Assembly: GCA_934359185.1 (NCBI GenBank)
Contig: CAKRLE010000004.1
Location: forward strand, 1-64,000
Direction: 5' to 3'
Length of the DNA stretch: 64,000 bases
Source of the DNA: an uncultured Lachnospira sp.
GTDB taxonomy: Bacteria > Bacillota > Clostridia > Lachnospirales > Lachnospiraceae
A model generated the notes under the pieces. It was not told the origin of the DNA. It saw only the letters and a program-made list of their open reading frames with translations, and did not search any database. Shown piece after piece: positions 6,697 to 29,244 of this stretch; position 1 is the stretch's first letter; the number at the start of each line of letters is the position of its first letter. A program made the position numbers and the translations under genes.

Positions 6697-8766
6697 TTAC
6701 TGCTTGTCCAGCATCTTTCCAAAATCTTCCATTGAAAGTGGTTTAGAATAATAATAGCCCTGAATATAATCACAGCCATGACGTTTAAGGAAATCAACCT
6801 GTTCCTTAGTTTCAGCTCCCTCTGCAATTACTTTTATGTCCATATGATGAGCCATATCAATGATTGAATGAATTACACTTCCAATTTTACTGTTCTTTCC
6901 AATCTTTCGCACAAATCCCATATCCAGCTTTAACAGGTCAAAATTGTAATCTGTTATTGTACTGAATGATGAATACCCACTTCCAAAATCATCGATAAGT
7001 ATATGTGCTCCCATATTACGGAATGATTCAAGTACTGAATGGTTCTTCTCTGCCATTCCGGCATATGAAGTCTCTGTAACCTCAAATCTGATGTAACCAT
7101 GAGGGTGACTCATCTCCTTCATATCTGCTATCATCGTCTCAATCATGTTAGTATCATAGAAATCCATCCATGACAGATTAGTTGATACAGGAACTGTAAA
7201 TCTGCCATCTTCTATTCTTCTTTTGATAAATGCATGAGTCTCATTAAATACATACATATCTAGCTTTGATACAAGACCAGTTTCCTCAAGTGCTGGAATA
7301 AATTTATCTGGTGATATAAATCCAAGCTCGGGATGCTTCCATCTTACCAGCGCCTCTGCTGACACAATTTTTTCTGTATTGACATCATACACTGGCTGAT
7401 AATATACTTTAAATTCTTTATTATCTATTGCATTATTGACACTGCTTACAGATAAAGCTTTTTCCATGTATGCTTCAACCATAGATGGCTCATATATTGC
7501 ATATGGCCTGACATGTATGTCCTCAACATGATCCTTTGCCATCTTGGCTCTGTCACACATTCTGTTAATATCAAGCTCACTATCCTTAACCATATATATG
7601 CCACATAATCCATGAAGCTCAATTATCTTGCCATTCATGCTGAACTTTGTATGAAGTATCTTACAAAGCTTGCCATAATCAATATTCCTTGAATCAACAA
7701 GACAAAGGAAATGATCCGCCTCACTTCTTGCCAGCACCATCGGTCTTAAAAATGATTCTTTAATCCTTGTAGCTGCTGCCCTGAGAATCATATCGCCGCC
7801 ATCAATACTATACATTTCATTGATAGCCTTGAAGTTCTTAATATTGATAAAAAGTACTGCATAGTTAATGCCTGAATTAGAACTATCCTTAACAAACTTT
7901 TCTGCCTCGCGCACAAAACCTCTGCGGTTAAACAGTCCTGTCAAAGAATCTCTTTCAATTACCCCGGTTACATCTTCCATGGTAGATACTATCGTATCCT
8001 TCTTATCATCAATATAATAATAAGCGAACTTCTTATACTTCTTCTCGCCCTTATCATCAACACTTGTAACCGTGAAATAATATGCATCATTGTCTTTTAA
8101 CTTTTCCACAAGATTAGCTATAGAGCTGTTATACATATATAATTCTGTTTCTTCTGTTGCGATAAATTTAGACGCAACACTTCTTACATACGGAACATAC
8201 TCTACCTCTCTCAAGGTAGCCGGAGACATATTTTCAGGCAGATATAAAAACTGGCTCATTAACGAGAACATTCCTGTATTCACTTTAATAAGCGCTATAC
8301 TCTCAAACTGTCTTCCAATAAGCAATGACTGAATCTTCTTCTCTACATACTGATGAGACATATCAAAAAGATAAACCAGTCCCTCAATATCACCTGTCAA
8401 AGGATTCCTGTACATATTGATTGTGGTAGTAAGAAACATCTGTCTGCCACATATATTATAGTTATGGTTAAGTGAAACAGACTTCTGTCCACTATTAAAT
8501 GCATTGAGAAGATTATATCTGTCAATACAGTTCATGTATATCTGGCGTTCCTTCTCATCAGGTACCCGGTCTGCTGCAATATCAAATAATTCCGTGGCAG
8601 ATATCCCATTAGTAGCAATTAACCCTTCTGGTATCTTACTTGTTCCACACAGGCACTCATCGCCTGATATGTTAACTCTATAAGAGCATAGATAGTCAGC
8701 ATGTCCTTCTATCATCGCATCCATCTGTGCCTGACTAACCAGCTTCTCATTCTCTGTTACGTTCAT
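6697..8766 (-). CDS. c-di-GMP phosphodiesterase, degenerate GGDEF + EAL
   Basis: A 689-residue soluble protein: an N-terminal region of PAS-like length (1-260, weakly recognisable), a GGDEF domain (about 265-430) and an EAL domain (about 450-689). The GGDEF signature is replaced by SEADHF, so synthase activity is unlikely. The EAL domain looks intact: AEALVRW (Glu471), FEVTETS, DDFGSGYSS, LKLDMGF, VIAEGAET and QGYYYSKP. It should hydrolyse c-di-GMP; the dead GGDEF may bind GTP as a regulator. It is the distal gene on the strand that carries the exopolysaccharide locus and is separated from the preceding gene by 155 bp containing repeated AGTAC motifs, so it probably has its own promoter. I infer that it lowers c-di-GMP seen by the PelD-like receptor at 26692-28920. 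Confidence 0.9.
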   Translation of the reverse strand: MNVTENEKLVSQAQMDAMIEGHADYLCSYRVNISGDECLCGTSKIPEGLIATNGISATELFDIAADRVPDEKERQIYMNCIDRYNLLNAFNSGQKSVSLNHNYNICGRQMFLTTTINMYRNPLTGDIEGLVYLFDMSHQYVEKKIQSLLIGRQFESIALIKVNTGMFSLMSQFLYLPENMSPATLREVEYVPYVRSVASKFIATEETELYMYNSSIANLVEKLKDNDAYYFTVTSVDDKGEKKYKKFAYYYIDDKKDTIVSTMEDVTGVIERDSLTGLFNRRGFVREAEKFVKDSSNSGINYAVLFINIKNFKAINEMYSIDGGDMILRAAATRIKESFLRPMVLARSEADHFLCLVDSRNIDYGKLCKILHTKFSMNGKIIELHGLCGIYMVKDSELDINRMCDRAKMAKDHVEDIHVRPYAIYEPSMVEAYMEKALSVSSVNNAIDNKEFKVYYQPVYDVNTEKIVSAEALVRWKHPELGFISPDKFIPALEETGLVSKLDMYVFNETHAFIKRRIEDGRFTVPVSTNLSWMDFYDTNMIETMIADMKEMSHPHGYIRFEVTETSYAGMAEKNHSVLESFRNMGAHILIDDFGSGYSSFSTITDYNFDLLKLDMGFVRKIGKNSKIGSVIHSIIDMAHHMDIKVIAEGAETKEQVDFLKRHGCDYIQGYYYSKPLSMEDFGKMLDKQ

Positions 8767-9863: not shown

Positions 9864-10814
9864 TTAATTCCGTATTTCCTTCATTTTTCTTTTCATATCA
9901 TACATTCTGCTGTCTGCTATTGAATAGACATCATGAGCATCAGCATGTATGTCACATCCTGACACATCGCTTCTTTGCGCATATCCATATGCTGCCGAAT
10001 ACTTGAATCTCTGTTCCCTGTCATTGTAAGCCGAAACATTGTCATTAAGTCTTGTTAAATCAGTATCAATATCATGCTGTGACATATTTTCTGCATCCTT
10101 GATAACTATATATTCATCGCCGCCCATACGTCCTATAACGCAACCTTCTGGAAATGTTGATTTTAATATGTCAGCATACCCTGTTATAAGGCAGTCTCCG
10201 CACTGATGTCCAAGTGTATCATTGATTATTTTCAGATTATTAAGGTCAAAACTGTATATTATATAATTTCTGGTATCGTTACTTATCGCGCAAAGAACTT
10301 CCTCACAGTATCTCCTGTTAAACAATCCTGTAAGATCATCTGAATATGCCATTTTATAGAGTGCAGCTTTATTATGCCTGCATTTTCTGCTTTTGACATT
10401 ATGGACAAAAAGGCTTATAGGACGCCGCACTGTCCTTAAATCAAGCCATATGCCTGTAAGCAGTTTATATATTACGTTAGTAACATTAATGTGTCTGCCA
10501 TTACGGTCAAGTGCAATCATCTTTCCTAATACCTGTTCTCTTGTAAGCGGACCTTCACATACACTCTGATTATCTCCAACTGTGTATACACCCTCTGGTT
10601 TTACCTTGTATATCCTGTGAATCACATATATAGCCTCTGGTTCTTTTCTTTTATAAAGAATAACATCCCCGCGCTTCAAAGTATCAAATTCTGTTTTTTC
10701 TATATACACATAATCTCTTCCTGGCACAATAACTGGATACATGCTGTAACCGACTGGTTTTATCTTTATAACATTGTGTTCAAGCGTTGTTTCAATATTC
10801 TGACTCAAATCCAC
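9864..10814 (-). CDS. Signal-peptidase-like (S24/S26) domain fused to a GGDEF diguanylate cyclase
   Basis: Residues 1-105 carry a signal-peptidase-like fold: GYSMYP with nucleophile Ser24, RGDVILY, VIHRIYKV with His66 and VGDNQSV. The Ser-His arrangement resembles SipW/ER-type peptidases rather than the Ser-Lys of bacterial SPase I. Residues about 155-316 form a GGDEF domain with DLTGLFNRR, FDLNNLKIIND and GGDEY (231-235), so it should make c-di-GMP. No RxxD inhibitory site precedes GGDEY. There is no clear transmembrane segment between the domains. The gene follows the NTP_transf_5 gene by 14 nt. The indicated start is a GTG overlapping its own GAGGG; a TTG two codons later has better spacing. 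I know of no described function for this domain pair. Confidence 0.8.
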   Translation of the reverse strand: MDLSQNIETTLEHNVIKIKPVGYSMYPVIVPGRDYVYIEKTEFDTLKRGDVILYKRKEPEAIYVIHRIYKVKPEGVYTVGDNQSVCEGPLTREQVLGKMIALDRNGRHINVTNVIYKLLTGIWLDLRTVRRPISLFVHNVKSRKCRHNKAALYKMAYSDDLTGLFNRRYCEEVLCAISNDTRNYIIYSFDLNNLKIINDTLGHQCGDCLITGYADILKSTFPEGCVIGRMGGDEYIVIKDAENMSQHDIDTDLTRLNDNVSAYNDREQRFKYSAAYGYAQRSDVSGCDIHADAHDVYSIADSRMYDMKRKMKEIRN

Positions 10815-13694: not shown

Positions 13695-15152
13695 ATGGAA
13701 AAGATTCTTGCTGCTCTCCTGAGCATTCTTGTCCTCATACCTGCGGCTTCTGTAGGTGTTAATGCTTACAGATATGGTACAAAAAGTATATCTGATACAT
13801 TTGAATATTCCGAGATAACATCTGAGCTTGATAATCCCTACTGTGGATGGTACAGCATGTTTGGATATTGTCTTACCAATGGTACTACGGATGAATTTGA
13901 CAACACTACTTCCAGCTATCTTCAAAGCAGTACTGATACCCGCTTAATCATGCTGGAGATTAACCTTAAAAATTTCAACACTGGTGAACTCAGCAGCAAT
14001 GCTCTCTCTCAGTTAGATAACATTATTTCCACATGGGGAAGCAATGGACACAATATTATACTCCGCTTTCTGTATGACTGGGATGGTAAGGCAAAGCAGA
14101 CTGAGCCTGCCGATATAAATATTATCAAGACGCATATGTCGCAGACCGCATCAGTTGTAAACCGCTATACCAGTTATGTATATATAATGCAGGGAATATT
14201 TGTTGGTAATTTTGCAGAGATGAACAACTCTAATTATATGGATGAAGCCAGTATGGTTGAACTTGCAGATTATCTTAACAATGTTATTGATAAAAGAATA
14301 TACCTGTCTGTGAGAACACCTCAGCACTTAAGAACTATTCTTAAAACAGCATCACTTCCAGATGTTGAAAGCACAGTAACAAGCAGAAGCCACAACTTCC
14401 GCATTGGTCTTTTCAATGATGGATGTCTTGGTTCATCAATAGACGTAGGAACATATGGTTCTTCTGATATGAGCTTTTCTTCCTCCAACTACACCTCTAA
14501 AGGCAGCAGAACCCAGGAGATACAATATCAGAATTCATTATGTCTTATGGTTCCTAATGGTGGCGAAGCCGTGCTTGATAACTCATATAATGACGTAGAT
14601 AATGCCGTCACAGACCTTGCAGCCATGCATGTATCATATCTTAACAGGGCACATGACATGAGTGTGCTTAACAAATGGAAACGTCAGATTTATACTGGTA
14701 ATGATGCATTCTATGGAACTACTGCTTATCAGTATATTGGTACCCATATTGGATATCGTTATGTATTAAGAGACTCAGATATTTCACTTAAATCATATAA
14801 ACAGACCGCATCTGTCATTCTTAATGTGGACAATGTCGGATTTTCGCCTGCATACCGTGATTTTAATGTATATGTATACGCCTCAATCACAGATGCAGAT
14901 GGCAATACAGACATGGTACAATGTGATGTGACATCACAGACTAATGTAAGAACATGGTATCCGGGACAGACAACGAATATCAATCTGTCTATACCTTTTG
15001 AAAACACCAATACTGCTGACAGTACTATTACATTCTATCTTAAAATAACAGACAATACATCTGGCGAAATTATTAAGCTTGCCAATGATATTGCACTGAC
15101 ACAGTACGGATATGAATTAGGAAGCCTCGATACCACTGTGCAGACCGATTGA
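13695..15152 (+). CDS. Secreted DUF4874/DUF4832 protein
   Basis: 485 residues with an N-terminal signal peptide (hydrophobic residues about 4-21, likely cleavage after VNA). The N-terminal domain looks like DUF4874, a TIM-barrel-like fold, with ILRFLYDWDG and MQGIFVGNFAEM; the acidic residues fit a glycoside-hydrolase-type active site. The C-terminal part (about 370-480) is a beta-sandwich typical of DUF4832. It is the only + strand gene inside the exopolysaccharide locus, driven by an extended -10 promoter, and it converges on a paralogue at 15117-16268 with a 36-bp overlap of 3' ends. I infer an extracellular glycan-acting role; no activity is established. Confidence 0.75.
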   Translation: MEKILAALLSILVLIPAASVGVNAYRYGTKSISDTFEYSEITSELDNPYCGWYSMFGYCLTNGTTDEFDNTTSSYLQSSTDTRLIMLEINLKNFNTGELSSNALSQLDNIISTWGSNGHNIILRFLYDWDGKAKQTEPADINIIKTHMSQTASVVNRYTSYVYIMQGIFVGNFAEMNNSNYMDEASMVELADYLNNVIDKRIYLSVRTPQHLRTILKTASLPDVESTVTSRSHNFRIGLFNDGCLGSSIDVGTYGSSDMSFSSSNYTSKGSRTQEIQYQNSLCLMVPNGGEAVLDNSYNDVDNAVTDLAAMHVSYLNRAHDMSVLNKWKRQIYTGNDAFYGTTAYQYIGTHIGYRYVLRDSDISLKSYKQTASVILNVDNVGFSPAYRDFNVYVYASITDADGNTDMVQCDVTSQTNVRTWYPGQTTNINLSIPFENTNTADSTITFYLKITDNTSGEIIKLANDIALTQYGYELGSLDTTVQTD

Positions 15153-16268: not shown

Positions 16269-17031
16269 CTGATTTCTCCACAGCCTTTGGCTCATTCTTT
16301 TCTTTACTCTGTCTTATAAGTATTCCAAGTATGCTTAAAAACATATGGAACATGTAACCAACAGGTTTTAGTCCTGAATGCATGCTCTTACCGGCAGTCC
16401 TTACATGCATTACGCCAGGAATTTCAACGACATTATAACCTTTAAGTATCATTCCCGTTATCATGTTGGCATCAGGGTATCTGTCATCAAAATGCCCGAA
16501 TTTAGAGTAATACACCATTGCTCTCCAGCTTATTCCCTGAAGTCCTGTAGTCGGATCCATTATAGTCTTGCCTGTAGCCATCCTGATTATAAACCTGAAA
16601 ATCTTATATGCTATATTTTTCATAAATGATACCGGATATGGCGCACTTTCTGGAAGATATCTTGATCCAAGCACAATATCAGGATAAGAGCCATTAATCT
16701 TAGTCTTTAATGTGTTGTATATATTAAGCACATTACAGGCATCATGCTGTCCATCTGCATCCATCTGGATAACATATTTGTAGCGGTAACGGATTGCATA
16801 CTTATAGCCAAGCTGCAGCGCTCCGCCATATCCAAGATTAAACACATGTGTTACAACTGCAACATTGCTTCTCTTCTTAGCTTTCCAGTTTGTATTGTCA
16901 GATGATGCATCATTCATAACAAGAATATCACACACCTCTGATATCTCTGGAACGCTTAATCTGTCTAATACCTTATCAATATTCTGCTCCTCATTGTAAG
17001 CAGGTATTATTATCAATACTTCCTTCTGCAT
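16261..17031 (-). CDS. GT2 glycosyltransferase, dolichol-phosphate-mannose-synthase-like
   Basis: 256 residues of GT-A fold: IIPAYNEEQNIDKVL (nucleotide binding), VMNDASSDNT, and the metal-binding DAD of MQMDADGQHD, then DPTTGLQGISW. This is the pattern of soluble polyprenyl-phosphate sugar transferases. The C-terminal segment (about 225-245) is hydrophobic and may attach it to the membrane. It probably makes a lipid-linked sugar for the locus, which would suit the polytopic GT-C-like protein at 23456-25837. ATG at 17031 with GAGGGG close upstream; the downstream DUF4832 gene overlaps it by 8 nt. Confidence 0.88.
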   Translation of the reverse strand: MQKEVLIIIPAYNEEQNIDKVLDRLSVPEISEVCDILVMNDASSDNTNWKAKKRSNVAVVTHVFNLGYGGALQLGYKYAIRYRYKYVIQMDADGQHDACNVLNIYNTLKTKINGSYPDIVLGSRYLPESAPYPVSFMKNIAYKIFRFIIRMATGKTIMDPTTGLQGISWRAMVYYSKFGHFDDRYPDANMITGMILKGYNVVEIPGVMHVRTAGKSMHSGLKPVGYMFHMFLSILGILIRQSKEKNEPKAVEKSDV

Positions 17032-18290: not shown

Positions 18291-18671
18291 TTATATGTCC
18301 GATTTATTCACACCTGTCATCTTTTCAAGGCGTGCAAGAATTCTTTCATTTTCCTGATTAAGCAATGACACATGCATTGCAAGCTCCTTATTGCGTTTCT
18401 TTAATTCTGCAATCTCTTTCGTTATTATAAATATAAACTGTATTACAAGAACTGCTATTATCCCAGCTGCTATATAGCCAGATGAATTCATTGTTGAACT
18501 CCAGTCATAAAGCCCCGGAACGACTCCTGACAATATCAGGACCACCGCAAACAGAGTCCATAACCATGTAAATTTTTCTGTAAGACGTTTTTTGACATAG
18601 GTTACCAGATTAAGCACAAGAAAAAGGCACCCTGTCACCACCACTGCGATTCTTAGAATTACTGGCATCAT
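18291..18671 (-). CDS. DUF2304 small membrane protein
   Basis: 126 residues with three hydrophobic segments (about 5-25, 37-55 and 65-88) and a C-terminal coiled coil rich in E, L and K. This is the DUF2304 layout; family members are usually encoded beside GT2 glycosyltransferases, as here. The start ATG overlaps the pelG stop as ATGA, giving direct translational coupling with pelG. A scaffolding role for membrane-associated sugar transfer is inferred from this association. Confidence 0.75.
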   Translation of the reverse strand: MMPVILRIAVVVTGCLFLVLNLVTYVKKRLTEKFTWLWTLFAVVLILSGVVPGLYDWSSTMNSSGYIAAGIIAVLVIQFIFIITKEIAELKKRNKELAMHVSLLNQENERILARLEKMTGVNKSDI

Positions 18672-20146
18672 TTCTTCTTACCTCCCCGCTTCCTGTTCTC
18701 CACAACCACGCCGTTAAATACCATACTTGAAGGCCTCTTACCCTTAACCCGGGCAAGAATATTACCATTGCAGAACACATGGATATGAAGTGTATCTTCT
18801 ATATATTTTAATCTGAAATATCCATATGTCCATGCACAGAATGCACCAAACACAAGACCTGCGCCATACCATATAACATCAAATCTCATGCTTACAATGC
18901 TTCCAGCAAATGTTACCACACAGAATATAAACGCTGTCATAAGCGAGCCATCAAGATCGTTAAAATAATACAGGAACATAAATATTGCATACATTATATA
19001 TACAATAAAATACCCTGCTGCAAGGCATGGATACAGCTGCAGCACAATTCCTGCAAATCCGAGTCTCTGTAAGGCAATAACACATATAAGGAATAATGCT
19101 GTTGATACAATAAACTGTATTCTTACCATAGACATAATAAGCTCTGATAACATACGGAACATTCTGCTCTTGGTCTTTTTGATATCTATAAGCCTTCCAC
19201 CTATAATAGCCTCCGAATACTGCTTATATCTTGCATTAAAATGCATCTCTATCAAAGATACAAATATTACACTGGCTGATATGTTGGTAAACATTCCAAG
19301 GCAGGTTGCAAAATCATATGACTCCGCACACACAAATGTGTCTGCAACAACATTTCTTAATCCAGATGTCCAGAACACAAAATTATGTATAAACAAACCT
19401 AATGTATACAATGTATTAGCACACACAAGCTTCCAGAATCTTAATATATATCTGATTACATCAAGATACTGCCTGCTGTTGGATGCAAAATAATGTCTTA
19501 AAAGGGCATACGACAATGATGCAATAACTATGAATCCTGCCGCCAGCGATAAAAGCATCGCCAGTGTTACTTCCATACCAGCGCCATACACAAGAACAAG
19601 TGACAGCACAAATGCAGATGCCATTCCTATTATATAAAACCATGAAATCTTTCCATAATCCTTACACAATGAAAGATACATTACCGTATAAAAGGTCAGC
19701 GACAATGCAATAAAGCACACAACTGATGCAAGTATATATATTACATCAACATTTCCAGTAAAATATTCATGCAGAGTAAATGGTATCACAAGTATACAGT
19801 TAAGCAGTATATCAAGGAATAATCCCACCCTGAATGCTGCCATAATGTTGCTGTACTGTTCCTTAAATATCTCGTCTGATACATATTTGGATAACACCGC
19901 ATTAAAAGGAGCCTGTGCAAGCAGCGTAAACATAAATATATATAATATAGTAACCTGAAAAAGCTCTCTGTTATTATATGTAGTAGCATCTGAATAATTA
20001 AGTGCCCATCTCATAAGCATTATATCACCGATAACTACTATCATTGGTGCAACCGTTGTTATGACACTGTAACCTGCACCTGCCACATATGATGAAACTG
20101 AGCTTTTACCAAAGAATTTGTTTAACTTGATGCCAATTCCCGCCAT
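18668..20146 (-). CDS. pelG: PelG-like exopolysaccharide transporter
   Basis: 492 residues with about 12 transmembrane segments. The opening (AGIGIKLNKFFGKSSVSSYVAGAGYSV) and AQAPFNAVLSKYVSDEIF are characteristic of PelG, the inner-membrane MOP-superfamily subunit that works with PelF, PelD and PelE to move Pel polysaccharide across the membrane. Its pairing with an adjacent pelF is the diagnostic core of pel loci. ATG at 20146 with GGAG 10 nt upstream, 15 nt after pelF. Family length agrees. Confidence 0.9.
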   Translation of the reverse strand: MAGIGIKLNKFFGKSSVSSYVAGAGYSVITTVAPMIVVIGDIMLMRWALNYSDATTYNNRELFQVTILYIFMFTLLAQAPFNAVLSKYVSDEIFKEQYSNIMAAFRVGLFLDILLNCILVIPFTLHEYFTGNVDVIYILASVVCFIALSLTFYTVMYLSLCKDYGKISWFYIIGMASAFVLSLVLVYGAGMEVTLAMLLSLAAGFIVIASLSYALLRHYFASNSRQYLDVIRYILRFWKLVCANTLYTLGLFIHNFVFWTSGLRNVVADTFVCAESYDFATCLGMFTNISASVIFVSLIEMHFNARYKQYSEAIIGGRLIDIKKTKSRMFRMLSELIMSMVRIQFIVSTALFLICVIALQRLGFAGIVLQLYPCLAAGYFIVYIMYAIFMFLYYFNDLDGSLMTAFIFCVVTFAGSIVSMRFDVIWYGAGLVFGAFCAWTYGYFRLKYIEDTLHIHVFCNGNILARVKGKRPSSMVFNGVVVENRKRGGKKK

Positions 20147-20161: not shown

Positions 20162-21577
20162 TTACTTTGATAATTTTTTATATATCTGGGCGTATGTCTT
20201 TTTCATGTCCTGAATTGTATATTTACTCATAAATCTCTTATATCCATTTTCACCATACTGCCTGCACACGTCAGGATTATCAGCAAGAAACAGCATTGCA
20301 TCCTTGATTTCTTCGACATTCATAATATGTGTAAGAATACCTGCCTGCCCAAAGCTGTCTCCCTCTCCATATATAAGTCCATGGCAGTTACCGACATCTG
20401 TTGCTATAACAGGCTTTTTAGCCCCATAACCTTCCAGAATTGTAAGAGGCTGACCTTCACTTATACTTGTAAGTATTGTGAAATCCATTCTGCCAATGTA
20501 TTCACTTGTATTAATTCTGCCTGTAAACACAATATCTTTAATCTTCATATCTTCAACAAGTGAAAAACATTCTTTCGCATAATCTGCATCTTCATCTGTC
20601 GGTCCCATTATCCATAGTTTTAACTTAGGATTAACAGCCTTCGCATATCCAAATGCCATTATCATTGTCTTGACATCCTTAATTGGCGTCACTCTAAGCA
20701 CTGCACCAATATTGATAAATGGGTCATCTGGATCCTTCTGTGGAATATCTGCAAATCTGTCTGGATCTATTCCATTAGGTGTTATTATTGTTTTACTTTC
20801 TTTACATCCTAATTCTATCTGTAATTCTCTCGCTCTTGCATACAGCGAGGTCACAATATCTGCCTTATTATATGCAAACAACGACATTTTCTTAAACTGG
20901 TCAATCCAGATATTCTTGTAAATGCTCTGAATCCACTCAGCCTTGATAATTTCTTCCTCACGCTCTCTTGTATATATACCATGCTCTGATACAATAAGCC
21001 TGCTGTCTGGATAAAGTATCTTAGCCATGCCTCCTAGTATTCCAGAATAACCAGTAGCCACGCAATGATATATATCAGCTTTAGGAATATCCGACTGCAT
21101 AGACAAAAACAATGGCAGATACATAGAACGCATTGTCCATAAGAAATCTGAGAAAACAATCTCGCCATGTTTTAACTCATAATTGCGCATTGATGCCTCA
21201 AGGAAATCTGGTCCCATAAGCAGCTGGTCAAGCGAAATCTTATGACTCTGAAATAATCTTGTAAGTTTCTCCCAGTCTGTATCCTTACCAATAAGAAGTG
21301 ATTCAAGCGCCTTAAGATTTTCACTTGATAATCTTGCCTTCTTATACTTCCTGTTAAGCTTAGTTACATATTCTTTATCATTGAGATATACCTCATGGAC
21401 TTCTGTCAGATTATCTGGCAGTGTGTATTTGAACTTGCCACTTACAGACCTGTCAGATACTATCGCCAGCATTATGAATTCATATTCAGGAAATGATGTT
21501 ATAAGGTTATTAATCCAGCCCGATACACCACCGATTACATAAGGATAACACCCTTCTGCAACTATACATATTCTCAT
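20162..21577 (-). CDS. pelF: PelF-like GT4 glycosyltransferase
   Basis: About 471 residues. The start MRICIVAEGCYPYVIGGVSGW, with the GGVS loop, and the long insertion between the two Rossmann domains are PelF hallmarks. The C-terminal domain has APxRVTPIKD-like VLRVTPIKDVKT and the EX7E motif in ISEGQPLTILEGYGAKKP. PelF uses UDP-GalNAc in P. aeruginosa to polymerise Pel; the donor here is unproven. The ATG at 21577 fits the family start, with AAAGG 11 nt upstream; the GTG at 21589 overlaps that ribosome binding site and is unlikely. Followed closely by pelG. Confidence 0.92.
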   Translation of the reverse strand: MRICIVAEGCYPYVIGGVSGWINNLITSFPEYEFIMLAIVSDRSVSGKFKYTLPDNLTEVHEVYLNDKEYVTKLNRKYKKARLSSENLKALESLLIGKDTDWEKLTRLFQSHKISLDQLLMGPDFLEASMRNYELKHGEIVFSDFLWTMRSMYLPLFLSMQSDIPKADIYHCVATGYSGILGGMAKILYPDSRLIVSEHGIYTREREEEIIKAEWIQSIYKNIWIDQFKKMSLFAYNKADIVTSLYARARELQIELGCKESKTIITPNGIDPDRFADIPQKDPDDPFINIGAVLRVTPIKDVKTMIMAFGYAKAVNPKLKLWIMGPTDEDADYAKECFSLVEDMKIKDIVFTGRINTSEYIGRMDFTILTSISEGQPLTILEGYGAKKPVIATDVGNCHGLIYGEGDSFGQAGILTHIMNVEEIKDAMLFLADNPDVCRQYGENGYKRFMSKYTIQDMKKTYAQIYKKLSK

Positions 21578-21593
21578 AAGGAACCGCACCTTT

Positions 21594-23408
21594 CTACAAT
21601 GTAATACGAATCTGCTTTTCCGTTGTTGTTATTATATACACACCGTCCTCAATTGTTGTATATGTTCCACCTGATACAGATTTAATATCTTTTTTATGTG
21701 TTCTAAGAACGAATCTTGAAATGTCCTGACTGCCTCTGATATCAACTATAAGGACATCACCATCCTGACGATAGCTGTAATCCAGGCTTAACATCTCTCT
21801 TACACGCTTATCAAGTTCAGAAACTGTACATCTGCTGAACTTCCTGCTTGAAGCAGTGAGGTTTTCAGTTGCCGCTGACACGTCTTTGATATATCTGTTC
21901 CAAAGATTATTCTCATCTGATGGGTAGTACATCTGTCTTATATCTATATCCATATTGCTATATGCAAGTGATGTATTAAGGCATCTGATTGTAAAATCAC
22001 TGCTGAAGGAATACTTCATACTGCTGACCGGTGTCTCTATAAGCAATTTGTCATCATCAATATATGAGAACAGATTGGTTTCATTATATTCATCTGAGCC
22101 TGTTACATATGTCTTAACATCTTCTAATATTTCATTATTACTATTCTTTATATCTTCTATTTCATCCTTCTTCAAAAAGATATTTAAGAATTCATAGCTT
22201 CCAATGTAATTCTTGTATGCATTCTTATCTGCATCAAGTTTATCTGCTAGAAGTTCACCATTACCTCTTGCTGTCGTAAGACCAGTCTCCGAATTCTGTT
22301 CTTTTATAAGACGGAAGAAATAGTCAAGTTCATTGATTGAAACTGATACTTTATCTGAATAATTAAGCTGTGGTGCCGCCATAAATGTAAACTTAACTGC
22401 TATCTTACTGCTTAGATTTGATAAATCTGGCCAGATAACATTTCCCAGATACGAATCCGTCGTCCTGCTGTAATATTTCTCAATCTGATTTTCATTCTCA
22501 TTAGACAGATATGGGAAATTCTCTACTATATATGTCTGCGCATCTATAGCAGGATATATATCATAATCTTTAGCCTCATATGCTATTGAACTGAGTATTC
22601 CAATTCCAGATATATTCTTAATAAAATCGCCATTAACGCAGAATACATAAGAATCATTCCATCTCTTTCTCCACACTAAAGAAGGCTGATTCTCATTCTC
22701 TAAATCCTGATAATCTTCTGCCTCAAGTTCTGCAGCCATATAAGTTTTAGTTCCAGTTGTTGTTATATACCATGGTATTGTAGGTGTAAGGTCACTATAT
22801 GTTCCATCAGTATCATTATCCTTATTAAACCATATTTCACCGCCAATAAAGAAATCATCAAAAACTCTTACTCCTGATGCTGTCACCTTTCTTGCCCAGT
22901 TCTCAATTCCACAATAATCCATTAATCTCTGATTCTTCCGGGTAATATCATATGCAGGCAATTTACACATTGTCACATTAATTCCTGCATTAGAAACCGC
23001 TTCAAGTGCATCCATCTGTGTTGAAAAATCCATATAATCAGAATCAATCAGCACCATCTCTGGTTTATTCCAGCTTTTTATCTCATACTTTGTTATATCT
23101 GAGTATGTAATCATATTTTTCTTTGAAAAACGGCACCACTGATAAACTGTTCTTCCATAGTCATTATCAGCATTACCTATATAAACCACATACCTGTTAG
23201 CACTACCAAGGACATCACTTTCTTTAGTAAGTACTTTATATTCATCAGACGCCTTGAGATTAGTTTCTGTAGCTGCCTTATAACTGTTATTCTCATAATC
23301 GTTATATTTTCTTCGTATAATTCCCGTAAACTGAAACAGAAATAATACCAGCATCATAATAACAGTAATTGTAAGAAATATACGTCTTGTAATCATCTTA
23401 GATTCCAT
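21594..23408 (-). CDS. Membrane-anchored DUF2194-like protein of the Pel-like locus
   Basis: 604 residues: one N-terminal transmembrane anchor (about 9-27) and a large extracytoplasmic part. The Rossmann-like first third (YVVYIGNADNDYGRTVYQW, PEMVLIDSDYMDF) and the later organisation resemble DUF2194, which I recall next to PelF in Firmicutes. In Proteobacteria the extracytoplasmic deacetylase/hydrolase is PelA; this protein occupies the position where such a function would be needed, but I see no NodB-type metal triad. ATG at 23408 with GAGG 6 nt upstream. The function is an inference from position. Confidence 0.6.
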   Translation of the reverse strand: MESKMITRRIFLTITVIMMLVLFLFQFTGIIRRKYNDYENNSYKAATETNLKASDEYKVLTKESDVLGSANRYVVYIGNADNDYGRTVYQWCRFSKKNMITYSDITKYEIKSWNKPEMVLIDSDYMDFSTQMDALEAVSNAGINVTMCKLPAYDITRKNQRLMDYCGIENWARKVTASGVRVFDDFFIGGEIWFNKDNDTDGTYSDLTPTIPWYITTTGTKTYMAAELEAEDYQDLENENQPSLVWRKRWNDSYVFCVNGDFIKNISGIGILSSIAYEAKDYDIYPAIDAQTYIVENFPYLSNENENQIEKYYSRTTDSYLGNVIWPDLSNLSSKIAVKFTFMAAPQLNYSDKVSVSINELDYFFRLIKEQNSETGLTTARGNGELLADKLDADKNAYKNYIGSYEFLNIFLKKDEIEDIKNSNNEILEDVKTYVTGSDEYNETNLFSYIDDDKLLIETPVSSMKYSFSSDFTIRCLNTSLAYSNMDIDIRQMYYPSDENNLWNRYIKDVSAATENLTASSRKFSRCTVSELDKRVREMLSLDYSYRQDGDVLIVDIRGSQDISRFVLRTHKKDIKSVSGGTYTTIEDGVYIITTTEKQIRITL

Positions 23409-23455: not shown

Positions 23456-25837
23456 TTACTTATTATAGCCATAATCAATCATCAGATTATTCAAAAATGA
23501 TGTATTCTGAACGAGCTTATAACATATAAACTCATCATCCTCATAATAAACAGTAAAATCCTCTGGATAAACCTCCTGATACCTTTTTGCCCAGTAATAC
23601 ATCTTACTCATAAGAATATATCTGGCTTCTCCTTTGTACATTGTATTGCCAGAATAATAATCAGCATATGTCTGTGATGCGCCCTCTTCAGACACTTCCC
23701 TGTCAGAATATATATTTGTAATTGTATAATCCAATGGTTTTTTCTCTATGTATACATACACTTCTTTCGTAGGAAGTGTAAATTTTGATGACCTCTTCAG
23801 CTTTCTCACAAAATCAGACAGCTCATAATGATATCCCCTTCCAGCCAGCATTCTCAGCTCATCTGTTGGCGATACAATTGTCCAGTTATTATCATTATGC
23901 TTATGTTCATCCATAATCTTATACATACAATACACAGCGCCATTAGTCTGCATAAGATTATATCTGCTGTTAATAGCAACAGGTCTTAACCCATATACCG
24001 AGAACATTCCTGCCACAACAGCTGCTGATATAATCAGCGAAGGAACATTGTATATCCACTGTCTCTTTTTTACAAATCTTGCAATAATTCCAGGTATCAT
24101 ATCAAGAATAATTCCTATAATAATTGTATACGAATACATGTAGTAAATTCTTCCTCGATTGACATCCATAATAGCAGGAAGCTTCAGGTAAGAGGATATA
24201 AGAATTGCAATTATAAATAACACTCCAAATGCAATTGTCACGTACTGGCAGCCATAATCCGAATCATAATTCTTCCAGTCAGCTATTGCCAGAACCACAC
24301 CATATACAAATACTATTCCGATTGAAATAATCATTATATATGCCCACACACCGCTGTATCCTGTAATTACAAATGTATCCAGAGTTTTGTGGAAACCTGC
24401 AAACAGCGCACGGCACTTGTTAAACACCTTATCTTTGACTACGATGACAGGATTCTGTTTTTCTGGTCTAGTAACATTCCCGGTTTCATTTCCTGACGGA
24501 TTCGATGTACTGCTGTCTGATGAGATGTTATTATTACTGCCAGCACCGGTTCCTATATCTGTATTATCAGTAATTCCTGCCTCTTTAATATCTTCATCAT
24601 AACCTGCGCTCTTAGTCACGTTGTCTGACTGGCTTGCTTTCTCACCTGAACTTTTAATGATATTAAGTCCCCATCCGATTGAACCCTGAAAATGATTACC
24701 CTGTGCTATAGATATACCCATTGGCAGTGCCGCTATGAATATACCTGCAAATAACGCAGCCATCAGGCGCAGGAAAAATCTTGGTCTTGGAAACCTCATC
24801 CAGTAAGCTATTACCATAGCTGCACAGAACAAACCAATAATCATGGTTCCATAGAAATGTACTGCAATCGTAAGTGAAAAACTACATGCCGCACCCGTAA
24901 GCTCATAGCGTTTTCTAATTCTGTATGCCTTATCCTTCCTGCCTTTGGTTCTTTCATGTTTCATATACTCAAACAAAAAATATAATGTCGGAAATATAAA
25001 TATCATTCCGTATTCCTGTGGAAGGTCGCACGAATATCTGCTGTAGCAGCCACTGTTAATAAAATTAACAGCCACAAATATAACTAATGCTCCATATGCA
25101 GCATATCTTGACTTTGTAAGATACCTTATGAATGCCCACAGAACCATATGTACAAATACCGCATTAGTCATAGCGAACAGTCTTAAAAGCACAGACACAT
25201 CTATTCTGAATATTTCATGCATAAAATATATGATACAGTGAAATCCATGTGGATATACACCAGCAACAAATATATTATTCTCCGTCATGGCATTAATCCA
25301 GTAGTTGTGTACTGCGATATCTGATGCAAGATATCCATAATTTTTGACGCTGTTAGAGCCATACATAACACATATAAGAATAACTGATGCTGCCACAGCA
25401 ATCCCTTCAATATTCTGTCTGTTACGGATCACTGACAGCTTTCTCATCCAGTCTGCAAACTGTCTTCCAACAGCCCGGCAGCATGATTGCAGATACGTCT
25501 TAAATCCAAGACTTCCCTTAAGCAGCCTGTCGATGGTCTCCATGGTATTCAAAAAAGTCCTTCTTATATCTTTAACCCTTGGCTTTATAAGTACATAAAG
25601 AATTGGTGTAAGATACAACACCAAAAGCGTAAAAAAATTAGATATGTGAATGAGCTGCAGGATAAAAACAACATTAATAATATAAAAATTACCTGACACA
25701 ACATATATTATAAATCTTTCATACATTCTTTGATTGGACAGCCTCTTCTTCATCACTATTGCTGGTATAAATAATACCAGTAGCGCATAAAGCGCCATTA
25801 TTATAAGCGATTGAAAGATATTGGATACATCCATCAT
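23456..25837 (-). CDS. Polytopic membrane protein, possible GT-C-type glycosyltransferase
   Basis: 793 residues with roughly 12-14 hydrophobic segments, a Ser/Asn/Gly-rich low-complexity loop (about residues 395-460) and a soluble C-terminal tail of about 140 residues. The first extracellular loop contains YLASDIAVHNYW, an acidic loop placed as in GT-C transferases that use polyprenyl-phosphate sugars. The adjacent GT2 at 16261-17031 could supply such a donor. It has no equivalent in the classical pelABCDEFG set as I know it. ATG at 25837, with AAGG upstream; lies between the pelE-like and DUF2194 genes. Confidence 0.5.
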   Translation of the reverse strand: MMDVSNIFQSLIIMALYALLVLFIPAIVMKKRLSNQRMYERFIIYVVSGNFYIINVVFILQLIHISNFFTLLVLYLTPILYVLIKPRVKDIRRTFLNTMETIDRLLKGSLGFKTYLQSCCRAVGRQFADWMRKLSVIRNRQNIEGIAVAASVILICVMYGSNSVKNYGYLASDIAVHNYWINAMTENNIFVAGVYPHGFHCIIYFMHEIFRIDVSVLLRLFAMTNAVFVHMVLWAFIRYLTKSRYAAYGALVIFVAVNFINSGCYSRYSCDLPQEYGMIFIFPTLYFLFEYMKHERTKGRKDKAYRIRKRYELTGAACSFSLTIAVHFYGTMIIGLFCAAMVIAYWMRFPRPRFFLRLMAALFAGIFIAALPMGISIAQGNHFQGSIGWGLNIIKSSGEKASQSDNVTKSAGYDEDIKEAGITDNTDIGTGAGSNNNISSDSSTSNPSGNETGNVTRPEKQNPVIVVKDKVFNKCRALFAGFHKTLDTFVITGYSGVWAYIMIISIGIVFVYGVVLAIADWKNYDSDYGCQYVTIAFGVLFIIAILISSYLKLPAIMDVNRGRIYYMYSYTIIIGIILDMIPGIIARFVKKRQWIYNVPSLIISAAVVAGMFSVYGLRPVAINSRYNLMQTNGAVYCMYKIMDEHKHNDNNWTIVSPTDELRMLAGRGYHYELSDFVRKLKRSSKFTLPTKEVYVYIEKKPLDYTITNIYSDREVSEEGASQTYADYYSGNTMYKGEARYILMSKMYYWAKRYQEVYPEDFTVYYEDDEFICYKLVQNTSFLNNLMIDYGYNK

Positions 25838-26691: not shown

Positions 26692-28920
26692 CTACCTTTC
26701 CAGCCTGTCAATTATCTGATATTCAAATCCGCCATCTGAAAGACGCTTCTCAACATACGACGCATCGGTTGTATTGGTGTTAGCAAGCAACAGATATGCA
26801 TTACCATCATTATTGCTTCCTATATAATCCGATGTTCTGACCATCTTGCTTAAATTGCCACTCGCTTTTACAAGATCTTTATCCGGAAGGATTATCTTGA
26901 TAAGTGTACAGTACGCAAGACCCTTATTTCTCGCATTAATAAAGGCATCAAGAAGTGTCTTGAATGCATCCGCATCAAGTATCCTTGTTCCCTCTATATA
27001 ACGTTCATTCTCAAGCATTTCAATATATCTGTCAGAACGAAGCACAGCATTCTGAATCATAAAGCTTATAACTCTTAATCTGTTTGTCTGTGCCATATTC
27101 ATTCTTTCCCAAGCTATATTCCATAACATGATAATAGAATTAAGCTCATCATTCTCATTAATAGCGACAGCCATCAGAGGATAATTCTTTGTAAGCTTCC
27201 TGTTAATATATACCTCACCCTTGATAAGTGCCTCATACATATCCGTATATTTGGTATATTCAATTGAGTTGCCAAGTGACCTCGCCTTTGGTGATGTTGC
27301 TGACATCAGTCGTGCAAAACTTCTGTTTGATACATTGTATATAGCAACATCATTACAATCCATAAGGTCAGATATAACCTCTGCCGCATGGAAGAATACT
27401 TCTTCTGGAGCATCCTGGTCAAGTGTCGCAGTTATCTCAAATATCTTGCCAAGGCTGTCTGTCTGATTGATTACCTGTGTCTGTAATTCATCTTTTAACT
27501 TGGCATTAATCATATTGATATCTTCAATATCTTTAAGTCTGCTCGCAAGATATATTGATTCATCCTTCCTGTCATCCTTTATAGTTCTTATCTTGTCACG
27601 CAGATATCCTACTGACAGGCCTAAGATTACAAGCTGAGCCATCCACACATATGTATTATAATCAAGCATTACATCAAATCCAGACCTTGAATACGTCTGT
27701 CTGAAAATGTAACCTGCAACCGCAAGAAATGAAGAAAATGCCGCCTGCTGCTGTCCATAGATAATTGCAAATATCTCTACATATATAAGGTATGGATCAA
27801 GCTTCGCAAAATAAGCACTTCCTGTAACCCTATTATTAATCATGAAGAATGGAATAAACACAATCATGTTCTCTATAAAAGGGAGTGCCACTCTGAGCAG
27901 GCTCTTGCATCCTGTCAGGAATTTCTTTCCTGCTGATGACTTCTTCCTGCTTCTGTCTACAAACTTATCTATGTCTTTCTTGAACTCATCAATCATTAAT
28001 TCCGCACACTTCGAAGCATCCTTGAATATAACAACATTGACCTCATCAGAAACATCCGGAATCTTAGTGCTATATAAAAAATCGTCCTTAATCTCATAAT
28101 TCTTTGCTATAAGCACATTGTCATCAATGCTGTCAATCTGTTCACTTACCATCTCTGCCAGCTCATCCTGGGTAATTCTTATATCACACCCAAGCCGGTA
28201 TATGCTTTCACGGAATGCAGTTTTATTGATTATATTGTATAATGCTTCAACAAAGTCATTGATATAGATAGGTGAATAATACTTTCCTGTTATTGTAGTC
28301 TGTTTGTCAGTATATGCCTCAATCAGCATTCTTGCACACATATCGCTCTTTAACACATGATCCTGTGGACTCTCAGGCTCATAACACATATTATCTACCC
28401 TTAGTGTTATAATATCTGCATTAGTATTCTGTCTCATGTTAGAACATGCAGACTCTCCGTTCTTTAACGCTACAGCTTTATAGATATCAGCATATTTTTC
28501 ATAACCACCAGAATATGAATCTCTTCTGGCTGATGTAATTTCCTTATATTCTGTCCTTGTAACCTGTTTCACTTCACTTGATGAGAGATTGATAAATCTT
28601 CCATGTCCGAGAAATAAAAATGCATTGAGGCAGTTAAATAATCCATTGCCAAAATTAACAACTTCTGTATATCCACCATTCCAGTCATAATTAGAATCAA
28701 ACGCTCCTGTAAAAACTGTCACATCCGGATTAACGCTTTCAAAAACCTCCTTGATGCAGTCACTATCATATGCAAATACATAATGTTCATATACATTCTG
28801 GAACTTGCTCTTATCAGCTTTGCTGCTGGTAAGAACATATATGTCACAACCTTCTTTACTAAGCTTCTGAATTATAGACGCAGTTACTCTATTAAATCCC
28901 CCTATTATTAACGCCTTCAT
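26692..28920 (-). CDS. pelD: PelD-like c-di-GMP receptor with N-terminal SDR-type domain
   Basis: 742 residues. Residues 1-290 form a Rossmann/SDR-like domain whose glycine loop (IGGFNRVTASII) and YxxxK motif are degenerate, suggesting a non-catalytic or altered domain. About 335-440 holds membrane segments, then a coiled stretch, a GAF-like domain (about 480-620) and a degenerate GGDEF domain. In the last, the active-site position reads NDGNA (704-708), but exactly five residues before it stands RTSD (Arg695, Asp698), the RxxD I-site by which P. aeruginosa PelD binds c-di-GMP. It should therefore sense but not make c-di-GMP and switch on polymer export through the PelE-, PelF- and PelG-like proteins. 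ATG at 28920, GGAGG 6 nt upstream. Confidence 0.85.
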   Translation of the reverse strand: MKALIIGGFNRVTASIIQKLSKEGCDIYVLTSSKADKSKFQNVYEHYVFAYDSDCIKEVFESVNPDVTVFTGAFDSNYDWNGGYTEVVNFGNGLFNCLNAFLFLGHGRFINLSSSEVKQVTRTEYKEITSARRDSYSGGYEKYADIYKAVALKNGESACSNMRQNTNADIITLRVDNMCYEPESPQDHVLKSDMCARMLIEAYTDKQTTITGKYYSPIYINDFVEALYNIINKTAFRESIYRLGCDIRITQDELAEMVSEQIDSIDDNVLIAKNYEIKDDFLYSTKIPDVSDEVNVVIFKDASKCAELMIDEFKKDIDKFVDRSRKKSSAGKKFLTGCKSLLRVALPFIENMIVFIPFFMINNRVTGSAYFAKLDPYLIYVEIFAIIYGQQQAAFSSFLAVAGYIFRQTYSRSGFDVMLDYNTYVWMAQLVILGLSVGYLRDKIRTIKDDRKDESIYLASRLKDIEDINMINAKLKDELQTQVINQTDSLGKIFEITATLDQDAPEEVFFHAAEVISDLMDCNDVAIYNVSNRSFARLMSATSPKARSLGNSIEYTKYTDMYEALIKGEVYINRKLTKNYPLMAVAINENDELNSIIMLWNIAWERMNMAQTNRLRVISFMIQNAVLRSDRYIEMLENERYIEGTRILDADAFKTLLDAFINARNKGLAYCTLIKIILPDKDLVKASGNLSKMVRTSDYIGSNNDGNAYLLLANTNTTDASYVEKRLSDGGFEYQIIDRLER

Positions 28921-28956: not shown

Positions 28957-29244
28957 CTATTCAACATACAGACATCCTTTCTCAAGCAGATTTTCGACAT
29001 AATCAGCAACATCTGACTGTGCTTCCTTAAAGGATATTCCATATTCACTTTGTATATTCTTAGCAATATCTTCAATTTCATATCCCATCTCAAGCTGTTC
29101 CCATATATATGCACCTGTAGCATTAAGCTTAATCGGATAAATGTAGCTGTCTATGGCATCCGAAGATTTAACCGGATAATCCCCCCTCATTAAAAGCCAC
29201 GAATATCCAGCAATCCGTCTAAGATAAAATCCATTATTTTTCAT
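28957..29244 (-). CDS. PqqD-like peptide-binding protein
   Basis: 95 residues with the PqqD/RRE layout: beta-hairpin (RRIAGYSWLLMRGDYP), KLNATGAYIWEQLEMG (the conserved LN-x-TG-x-x-IWE), and a winged-helix end (DVADYVENLLEKGCLYVE). PqqD-type domains usually bind precursor peptides or partner enzymes; no radical SAM maturase is nearby. Together with the NTP_transf_5 and S24/S26 proteins of this locus it makes a combination seen in several Firmicutes. It is the first gene of the Pel-like operon. ATG at 29244 with AAGGAG 7 nt upstream. Confidence 0.85.
   Translation of the reverse strand: MKNNGFYLRRIAGYSWLLMRGDYPVKSSDAIDSYIYPIKLNATGAYIWEQLEMGYEIEDIAKNIQSEYGISFKEAQSDVADYVENLLEKGCLYVE

What the first reader, a model, noticed from the sequence alone, without database searches (positions are those of the whole stretch)
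26692..28920. PelD-like receptor keeps the c-di-GMP I-site while losing the GGDEF active site, and carries a pseudo-SDR domain
RTSD (Arg695-Asp698) stands exactly five residues before the position of GGDEF, which reads NDGNA. This is the geometry of the inhibitory site that PelD of P. aeruginosa uses to bind c-di-GMP. The N-terminal Rossmann domain lacks the usual glycine motif and YxxxK. I recall SDR-PelD fusions in some Gram-positive pel clusters, but cannot check it. A c-di-GMP-gated polysaccharide in a gut Firmicute would matter for biofilm and host contact.
Basis: partly seen in the sequence, partly recalled or inferred. Interest (0 to 1): 0.85.

Follow-up and report, generated by a model that had tools for sequence, protein, structure and literature searches.

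The report
PelD receptor beside dead Pel deacetylase
A clostridial bacterium carries a known kind of c-di-GMP receptor (PelD) for making a biofilm-type sugar polymer, and the follow-up showed that the partner enzyme that trims this polymer has lost its catalytic site here and in the relatives examined, which would break a rule learned from Bacillus cereus.

Summary
The 742-aa protein (minus strand, 26692-28920) has RTSD at 695-698 and NDGNA at 704-708. R695, D698 and a third arginine, R726, align with the three P. aeruginosa PelD c-di-GMP ligands (R367, D370, R402); 54 of 54 locus relatives keep all three. The N-terminal part has an extended-SDR fold but lacks the third glycine (0 of 54) and, in 53 of 55, YxxxK.

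This protein type is not new: Whitfield 2020 (PMC7112168) described SDR-PelD fusions with altered SDR catalytic residues in clostridia, and c-di-GMP binding by B. cereus PelD.

What I did not find in print is next door. The cluster's PelA-deacetylase homologue (DUF2194, 21594-23408) has lost its metal/catalytic site: no HxxxH in 50 of 50 (window plus 49 homologues from 48 loci) or in 120 of 120 listed database proteins, against 120 of 120 intact in a list drawn with the intact form. In B. cereus, catalytically dead PelADA gives no detectable Pel (PMC13254593). So this machine runs without PelADA deacetylation, borrows a deacetylase, or makes another polymer.

c-di-GMP binding, polymer identity and the pseudo-SDR's role are untested. 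Verdict: known receptor class inside a new variant of the Pel system.

The parts
26692..28920 (-). PelD-type receptor, 742 aa: pseudo-SDR + 4 hydrophobic segments + GAF + degenerate GGDEF with c-di-GMP I-site
27946..28920 (-). N-terminal extended-SDR (epimerase-like) pseudoenzyme domain, residues ~1-325; GxxGxxG and YxxxK lost
27601..27888 (-). four hydrophobic (probable transmembrane) segments, residues ~345-440
   Evidence: family-average Kyte-Doolittle peaks starting at 345, 371, 393, 424; the single sequence alone gives one strong segment
27010..27408 (-). GAF domain, residues ~505-637
26695..26973 (-). degenerate GGDEF domain, residues ~650-742
   Evidence: profile vs PDB diguanylate cyclase 3ign E 0.0069 with RxxD in register; hhalign to PelD
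26827..26838 (-). I-site RTSD, residues 695-698
26797..26811 (-). NDGNA at the GGDEF active-site position, residues 704-708
26743..26745 (-). R726, equivalent of the third c-di-GMP ligand R402 of P. aeruginosa PelD
28957..29244 (-). PqqD-like protein, first gene of the run
   Evidence: Pfam PF05402
25870..26685 (-). PelE-position protein (one N-terminal hydrophobic segment), 271 aa
   Evidence: synteny in the loci; hydropathy
23456..25837 (-). 793-aa multi-pass membrane protein, 12 hydrophobic segments, no family match; GT-C-like by recalled motif only
21594..23408 (-). DUF2194 protein, homologue of PelA deacetylase (PelADA, CE26): pseudo-deacetylase
   Evidence: Pfam PF09960; hhalign to Cetobacterium PelADA Prob 96.2 E 2.3e-9; motif loss
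22518..22523 (-). E296-N297 at the position of the catalytic/metal Asp pair (D262, D263 of B. cereus PelADA)
22263..22289 (-). ETGLTTARG (374-382) at the position of E[LI]G[LI]HGYNH, the HxxxH metal motif
20162..21589 (-). PelF glycosyltransferase
   Evidence: NCBIfam NF038011 345.5 bits, cut-off 100
18668..20146 (-). PelG exporter
   Evidence: PF16933 437.3 bits
18291..18671 (-). DUF2304 small membrane protein
   Evidence: PF10066
17061..18278 (-). GT4 glycosyltransferase
   Evidence: PF00534
16261..17031 (-). GT2 glycosyltransferase
   Evidence: PF00535
15117..16295 (-). DUF4874/DUF4832 protein (same domain name as the SIR_1591 hydrolase)
   Evidence: PMC12345266 passages
13695..15152 (+). 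second DUF4874/DUF4832 protein, opposite strand
9864..10814 (-). signal-peptidase-like domain fused to a GGDEF domain (GGDEY, no RxxD five residues upstream): candidate diguanylate cyclase
6697..8766 (-). GGDEF-EAL protein, EALVR kept: candidate c-di-GMP phosphodiesterase

Best explanation
PelD here is a membrane-anchored c-di-GMP receptor. c-di-GMP binds the I-site (R695, D698, R726) of its degenerate GGDEF domain and switches on the PelF/PelG complex, which polymerises and exports a Pel-like alpha-GalNAc polymer. The SDR part no longer does chemistry and most likely serves as a docking or nucleotide-sugar-sensing module on the cytoplasmic face. The PelA-deacetylase homologue has lost its metal and catalytic residues, so it probably acts only as a polymer-binding or guiding subunit, and the polymer leaves acetylated unless another enzyme acts on it. 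Shown by sequence: the operon, the I-site triad, the loss of SDR motifs, the loss of the deacetylase site. Inferred: c-di-GMP binding, gating, polymer identity, and what the two pseudoenzymes do.
For: I-site triad 54 of 54 locus PelDs and aligned with R367/D370/R402 of PelD (that profile hits the PelD structures at E 1.2e-36). Model: RTSD directly after helix 683-693 and before strand 699-702, NDGNA in the following turn, the layout expected of a GGDEF domain. Foldseek's top hit in its PDB library is P. aeruginosa PelD 4etz (E 3.2e-7). PelF and PelG are clear family members. 48 of 48 genomes carrying this PelD hold GGDEF proteins, and the window has a candidate cyclase and phosphodiesterase. 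Deacetylase site: no HxxxH in 50 of 50 and in 120 of 120 listed proteins, against 120 of 120 with all five residues in the list drawn with the intact form. Two DUF4832/DUF4874 proteins lie nearby; a DUF4832 protein was shown to disrupt GalNAc-rich Pel aggregates in S. intermedius (PMC12345266), though I link them by domain name only.
Against: In B. cereus, catalytically dead PelADA gives no detectable Pel (PMC13254593), so a Pel machine with a dead PelADA is not expected to work unless it has been rewired. Whitfield 2020 left open whether the Roseburia loci make Pel at all. The superposition on PelD over the whole two-domain model is poor (TM 0.36, rmsd 15.9) and VIA's PelD rows cover the GAF domain only. 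DGC presence in 48 of 48 genomes has no background control.
Confidence: 0.62

Rival explanations
1. The operon makes a polymer unrelated to Pel (capsule- or teichoic-like, possibly decorated outside the membrane). PelF has changed donor, and the deacetylase died because its substrate is gone.
For: Whitfield 2020 raises this for the Roseburia loci. The window run adds a GT4, a GT2, DUF2304 and a 793-aa multi-pass protein. Among 23 loci with at least 2 kb after pelG, 18 have the GT4 or GT2. No such genes were hit in the seven regions with an intact deacetylase (L089-L095), in the 0.3-5.1 kb available beyond pelG there. The deacetylase site is lost.
Against: PelF scores 345.5 bits against a PelF equivalog cut-off of 100 and is on average the best conserved of the run proteins compared (mean 61% identity, range 57-90% over 49 near-full alignments). 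DUF4832 proteins accompany it.
Confidence: 0.22
2. The polymer is ordinary cationic Pel, deacetylated in trans by an enzyme encoded elsewhere in the genome.
For: CE4 enzymes are common in Firmicutes (general knowledge). PelD, PelF and PelG look ordinary.
Against: A CE4-type pattern scan of the 53 loci and the window found no sense-strand candidate: hits in 2 of 53 loci, all on ORFs antisense to pel genes, none in the window; it saw only the stored flanks, not whole genomes. The cluster's own homologue is kept in 48 loci without a site, so it probably has another job.
Confidence: 0.14
3. The RxxD is structural only: PelD is a scaffold for PelF/PelG that is not gated by c-di-GMP.
For: S. intermedius PelD lacks the GGDEF domain altogether and pelD is still needed for Pel-dependent aggregation (PMC12345266). 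The domain has lost the cyclase motif.
Against: Three ligand residues spread over 32 positions are invariant while 704 and 707 of the GGDEF position drift. All 48 genomes searched hold GGDEF proteins. B. cereus PelD with the same triad binds c-di-GMP (PMC7112168).
Confidence: 0.1
4. The SDR domain is still an active epimerase or binds NAD with an unusual motif.
For: The fold is predicted with good confidence. An SSxxV-like stretch (S113, V117) and E156 are invariant in alignment A2. L008 and L010 keep YxxxK.
Against: Third glycine absent 54 of 54, YxxxK absent in 53 of 55. Other SDR-PelDs keep motifs (L089 both, L090 the glycines only), so the loss is clade-specific.
Confidence: 0.06

Closest known systems
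SDR-PelD fusions of clostridia, streptococci, actinobacteria (Whitfield et al. 2020, PMC7112168; four PelD classes as cited in PMC12345266)
   Same: N-terminal SDR with altered cofactor and catalytic residues, TM region, GAF, degenerate GGDEF; pel-type operon; Roseburia loci embedded in a larger capsule- or teichoic-like cluster
   Different: Nothing categorical found for PelD itself. Streptococcal members lack the GGDEF domain; this one keeps it with a complete I-site triad.
PelD of Bacillus cereus ATCC 10987 and P. aeruginosa
   Same: RxxD plus the third arginine (R363/D366/R395 and R367/D370/R402, PMC7112168 passages); TM-GAF-GGDEF core
   Different: Neither has the SDR domain; binding was measured there, not here
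PelADA of B. cereus (CE26, PDB 9ZAU, PMC13254593)
   Same: Homologous DUF2194 protein in the same operon between PelE and PelF
   Different: B. cereus keeps D262, D263, H350, H354, H488; the window family has none of the histidines and never both Asp residues (one Asp in 4 of 50)
Pel cluster of Streptococcus intermedius (PMC12345266)
   Same: Degenerate SDR on PelD; DUF4832 hydrolase; polymer rich in GalNAc
   Different: No GGDEF domain and no known diguanylate cyclases; whether its PelADA keeps the catalytic site was not examined here

Membership tests
PelD c-di-GMP receptors | GAF followed by degenerate GGDEF homologous to PelD | tested here: met
   hhalign Prob 95.6, E 1.2e-8, 254 columns; Foldseek top hit PelD, though with TM 0.36
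PelD c-di-GMP receptors | I-site residues equivalent to R367, D370, R402 | tested here: met
   R695, D698, R726 aligned; 54 of 54 locus PelDs
PelD c-di-GMP receptors | active-site GGDEF lost | tested here: met
   NDGNA; GG[DE]EF in 0 of 54
PelD c-di-GMP receptors | four transmembrane segments before the GAF domain | tested here: met
   four family-average hydropathy peaks 345-440; the single sequence alone shows only one strong segment
PelD c-di-GMP receptors | c-di-GMP binding | not testable with these tools
   needs ITC or DRaCALA
Pel operon (Gram-positive pelDEADAFG) | PelF and PelG | tested here: met
Pel operon (Gram-positive pelDEADAFG) | catalytically competent PelADA | tested here: not met
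   metal/catalytic residues lost: window and 49 of 49 homologues over 500 aa from 48 loci; 120 of 120 listed proteins, one of them the window's own
Pel operon (Gram-positive pelDEADAFG) | product is partially de-N-acetylated alpha-1,4-GalNAc | not testable with these tools
   needs polymer isolation
Extended SDR / NDP-sugar epimerases | fold | tested here: met
Extended SDR / NDP-sugar epimerases | GxxGxxG and YxxxK | tested here: not met

The most novel reading that the evidence does not exclude
Lachnospiraceae and relatives run a c-di-GMP-gated Pel-type synthase in which three parts are pseudoenzymes (cyclase domain, epimerase domain and deacetylase). Synthesis is uncoupled from deacetylation: the dead PelADA is only a guide, the polymer stays neutral or is decorated by the extra glycosyltransferases, and the pseudo-epimerase reads the UDP-sugar supply as a second input. 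This would overturn the idea that PelADA catalysis is an obligatory checkpoint of Gram-positive Pel systems.
Probability: 0.3. Interest if true: 0.75.

Novelty: new variant of a known kind. Interest (0 to 1): 0.52.

Why it matters
The receptor itself confirms a published class. The dead deacetylase matters more. In B. cereus a catalytically dead PelADA stops detectable Pel production, and the authors hypothesise that failure to deacetylate halts synthesis (PMC13254593). Here a group of clostridia has kept the operon and the I-site of its c-di-GMP switch while losing that catalysis. That gives a natural test of whether deacetylation gates synthesis, and suggests that the polymers of these commensals differ in charge from the cationic Pel of P. 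aeruginosa, which would change how they bind DNA and host surfaces.

Tried and rejected
Single-sequence scans of PelD gave nothing: Pfam, NCBIfam, PDB by phmmer; alignments were needed. An Rfam scan of the window for c-di-GMP riboswitches found no family at the gathering threshold. DUF2194 against proteobacterial PelA directly: no significant match (Prob 0.1), and Cetobacterium against proteobacterial PelA likewise (Prob 0.2); the link runs through Cetobacterium and B. cereus 9ZAU instead, and the direct match of the window family's profile to 9ZAU (E 5.5e-4) covers only a C-terminal stretch. My first guess of the lost Asp motif (a TFMAAP stretch) was wrong; hhalign and the multiple alignment place it at VENFP. 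The H488 position is assigned from the MAFFT alignment A8 alone. The 793-aa membrane protein: no meaningful Pfam and no PDB match as a family, so 'GT-C-like' is recalled and untested.

GGDEF proteins in 48 of 48 genomes (48 of the 53 loci were given; the other five share accession prefixes with loci given) is not discriminating without a background set. Of nine plasmid pel regions fetched two, L057 and L060, had no annotated PelD and were not used. In the DUF2194 set only ORFs over 500 aa were kept, so two pieces in L024 were dropped. The genome sample for DUF2194: 22 of 299 genomes matched, 10 over the cut-off. Of these ten, seven (L063-L069) keep the site; L070 is a fragment beyond the HxxxH position; L071/L096 has the two Asp but no histidine; L072 is Roseburia porci, already in the locus set, and lacks the site. 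The two lists of 120 are the best-scoring of 290 and 1252, the first includes the window's own protein and many near-identical sequences, the second at least one of its own query sequences, so they are not independent counts. Streptococcal PelADA was not obtained. No paper saying that clostridial PelADA is catalytically dead was found by searches (20 of 58 papers listed; 2 papers; 6 papers) or by the passages; supplementary figures were not seen, and the 2021 review that I recall as the source of the PelD classes is not held.

Full report
WHAT IS THERE. The ORF runs on the minus strand, 28920 to 26692, 742 aa. RTSD is at 695-698 and NDGNA at 704-708. It sits in a same-strand run of closely spaced genes (29244 down to 15117): PqqD-like, PelD, PelE-position protein, a 793-aa multi-pass membrane protein, a DUF2194 protein, PelF, PelG, DUF2304, GT4, GT2 and a DUF4874/DUF4832 protein. 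A second DUF4874/DUF4832 gene faces it. Further down lie a flippase, a nucleotidyltransferase, a signal-peptidase/GGDEF fusion and a GGDEF-EAL protein. The core order recurs in most of 53 genome loci, with the 793-aa protein sometimes elsewhere or absent; their record titles name clostridia, mostly Lachnospiraceae.

ALREADY KNOWN. Whitfield et al. 2020 (PMC7112168; section 6 and part 1 of section 12 read, plus passages) describe SDR domains on PelD of Brevibacillus (judged possibly functional) and of streptococci, clostridia and actinobacteria (judged likely inactive), degenerate GGDEF domains, and Roseburia loci in a larger cluster whose product is unclear. B. cereus PelD binds c-di-GMP, and R363A, D366A and R395A mutants lost biofilm. 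PMC12345266 (passages) speaks of four PelD classes. The finding as written is therefore a correct reading of a published class.

THE DEAD DEACETYLASE. The DUF2194 protein between the 793-aa protein and PelF is the PelADA homologue. Its 17-sequence profile matches the Cetobacterium pel-cluster DUF2194 protein at Prob 96.2, E 2.3e-9, and B. cereus PelADA, PDB 9ZAU, at E 5.5e-4 over a C-terminal stretch. An intact relative, L063, matches 9ZAU at E 8.4e-84 with IDDFP, HGYNH and HFVHPDD aligned. In B. cereus D263, H350, H354 and H488 coordinate zinc and D262/H488 are the predicted base/acid pair; catalytically inactive mutants gave no detectable Pel (PMC13254593; abstract and passages). In the window protein the Asp pair reads E296-N297 and the HxxxH stretch reads ETGLTTARG. 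HxxxH occurs nowhere in 50 of 50 proteins (window plus 49 homologues over 500 aa from 48 loci). The first Asp is D in 0 of 50, the second in 4 of 50. Of the 120 listed database proteins (best of 290; one is the window's own) none has HxxxH, the first Asp or the acid histidine; 7 keep the second Asp. Conversely both Cetobacterium proteins, seven homologues from a 299-genome phylum sample (L063-L069) and 120 of 120 proteins in a list drawn with the intact profile (best of 1252; including Paenibacillus, Brevibacillus, Clostridium and Selenomonas by name) keep the motifs. All five residues were scored for the 120 and for the eight intact rows of A8. The sample's other hits over the cut-off were a fragment (L070), Roseburia porci (L072, a member of the window family) and one with both Asp but no histidine (L071/L096). 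E374 and G376 beside the lost site are invariant in the 50, which suggests that the fold is still under selection. A pattern scan for a CE4-type replacement found only antisense ORFs in 2 of 53 loci and nothing in the window; it covered only the stored flanks.

The seven intact-deacetylase regions carry PelDs with GxxGxxG-type SDRs (L089, L090), with an N-terminal extension not matched by the SDR profile (L091, L092) or without extension (L093-L095). All seven show the RxxD...R pattern at the C-terminus by eye. The I-site is thus the constant, and the SDR motif and the deacetylase are what vary.

HOW IT MOST LIKELY WORKS. c-di-GMP, made by cyclases of the genome (48 of 48 genomes searched have GGDEF proteins, 1 to 20 each; no background control), binds PelD and activates PelF/PelG, as reported for B. 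cereus and P. aeruginosa. The polymer is probably GalNAc-based: PelF passes its family cut-off and is the best conserved of the run proteins compared, and two DUF4832 proteins are present; the S. intermedius DUF4832 protein SIR_1591 disrupts GalNAc-rich aggregates (PMC12345266). Because the deacetylase homologue is dead, the polymer should leave acetylated or be modified by the extra GT4/GT2 genes. These are present in 18 of 23 loci with at least 2 kb after pelG and were not hit in the seven intact-deacetylase regions, where 0.3-5.1 kb beyond pelG was available. Gating, polymer identity and the roles of both pseudoenzymes are inferred.

VERDICT. The receptor is a member of a known class. The cluster around it is a new variant of the Pel system, marked by a pseudo-deacetylase that I did not find described in the searches made.

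Noticed in passing
window 9864-10814 (-): A signal-peptidase-I-like domain (TIGR02228, 52.0 bits, just over its cut-off of 51.85) fused to a GGDEF domain reading GGDEY with no RxxD upstream; in Roseburia porci (L053:9186-9647) a separate short relative stands just before pqqD-pelD.
   Followed up: partly
window 13695-15152 (+) and 15117-16295 (-): Two DUF4874/DUF4832 proteins on opposite strands whose 3' ends overlap by 36 bases.
   Followed up: partly
window 23456-25837 (-): A 793-aa membrane protein with 12 hydrophobic segments and an invariant D173/H177/H200 set in a 12-sequence alignment; a hit in 44 of 53 loci (35 at 29% identity or more) at varying positions, without any meaningful Pfam or any PDB match as a family.
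   Followed up: partly
L043; L022/L026/L035; L023/L052; L025/L051; L011/L015: Several genomes carry two or three pelD genes; L043 has two divergently arranged clusters with pelD genes 1.5 kb apart.
   Followed up: no
L048, L049: pelD with a pseudo-SDR region about 100 to 120 residues longer than in the nearest relatives (879 and 857 aa in all).
   Followed up: no
L096:4335-6501: pelD read as two overlapping frames beside a partly degenerate DUF2194 gene; break or sequencing error not decided.
   Followed up: no
L024:9797-11686: The DUF2194 gene is split into two ORFs; break or sequencing error not decided.
   Followed up: no
window 28957-29244 (-): A PqqD-like gene directly before pelD, also found in 12 of 53 loci, among them the closest; its link to polymer synthesis is unexplained.
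   Followed up: no
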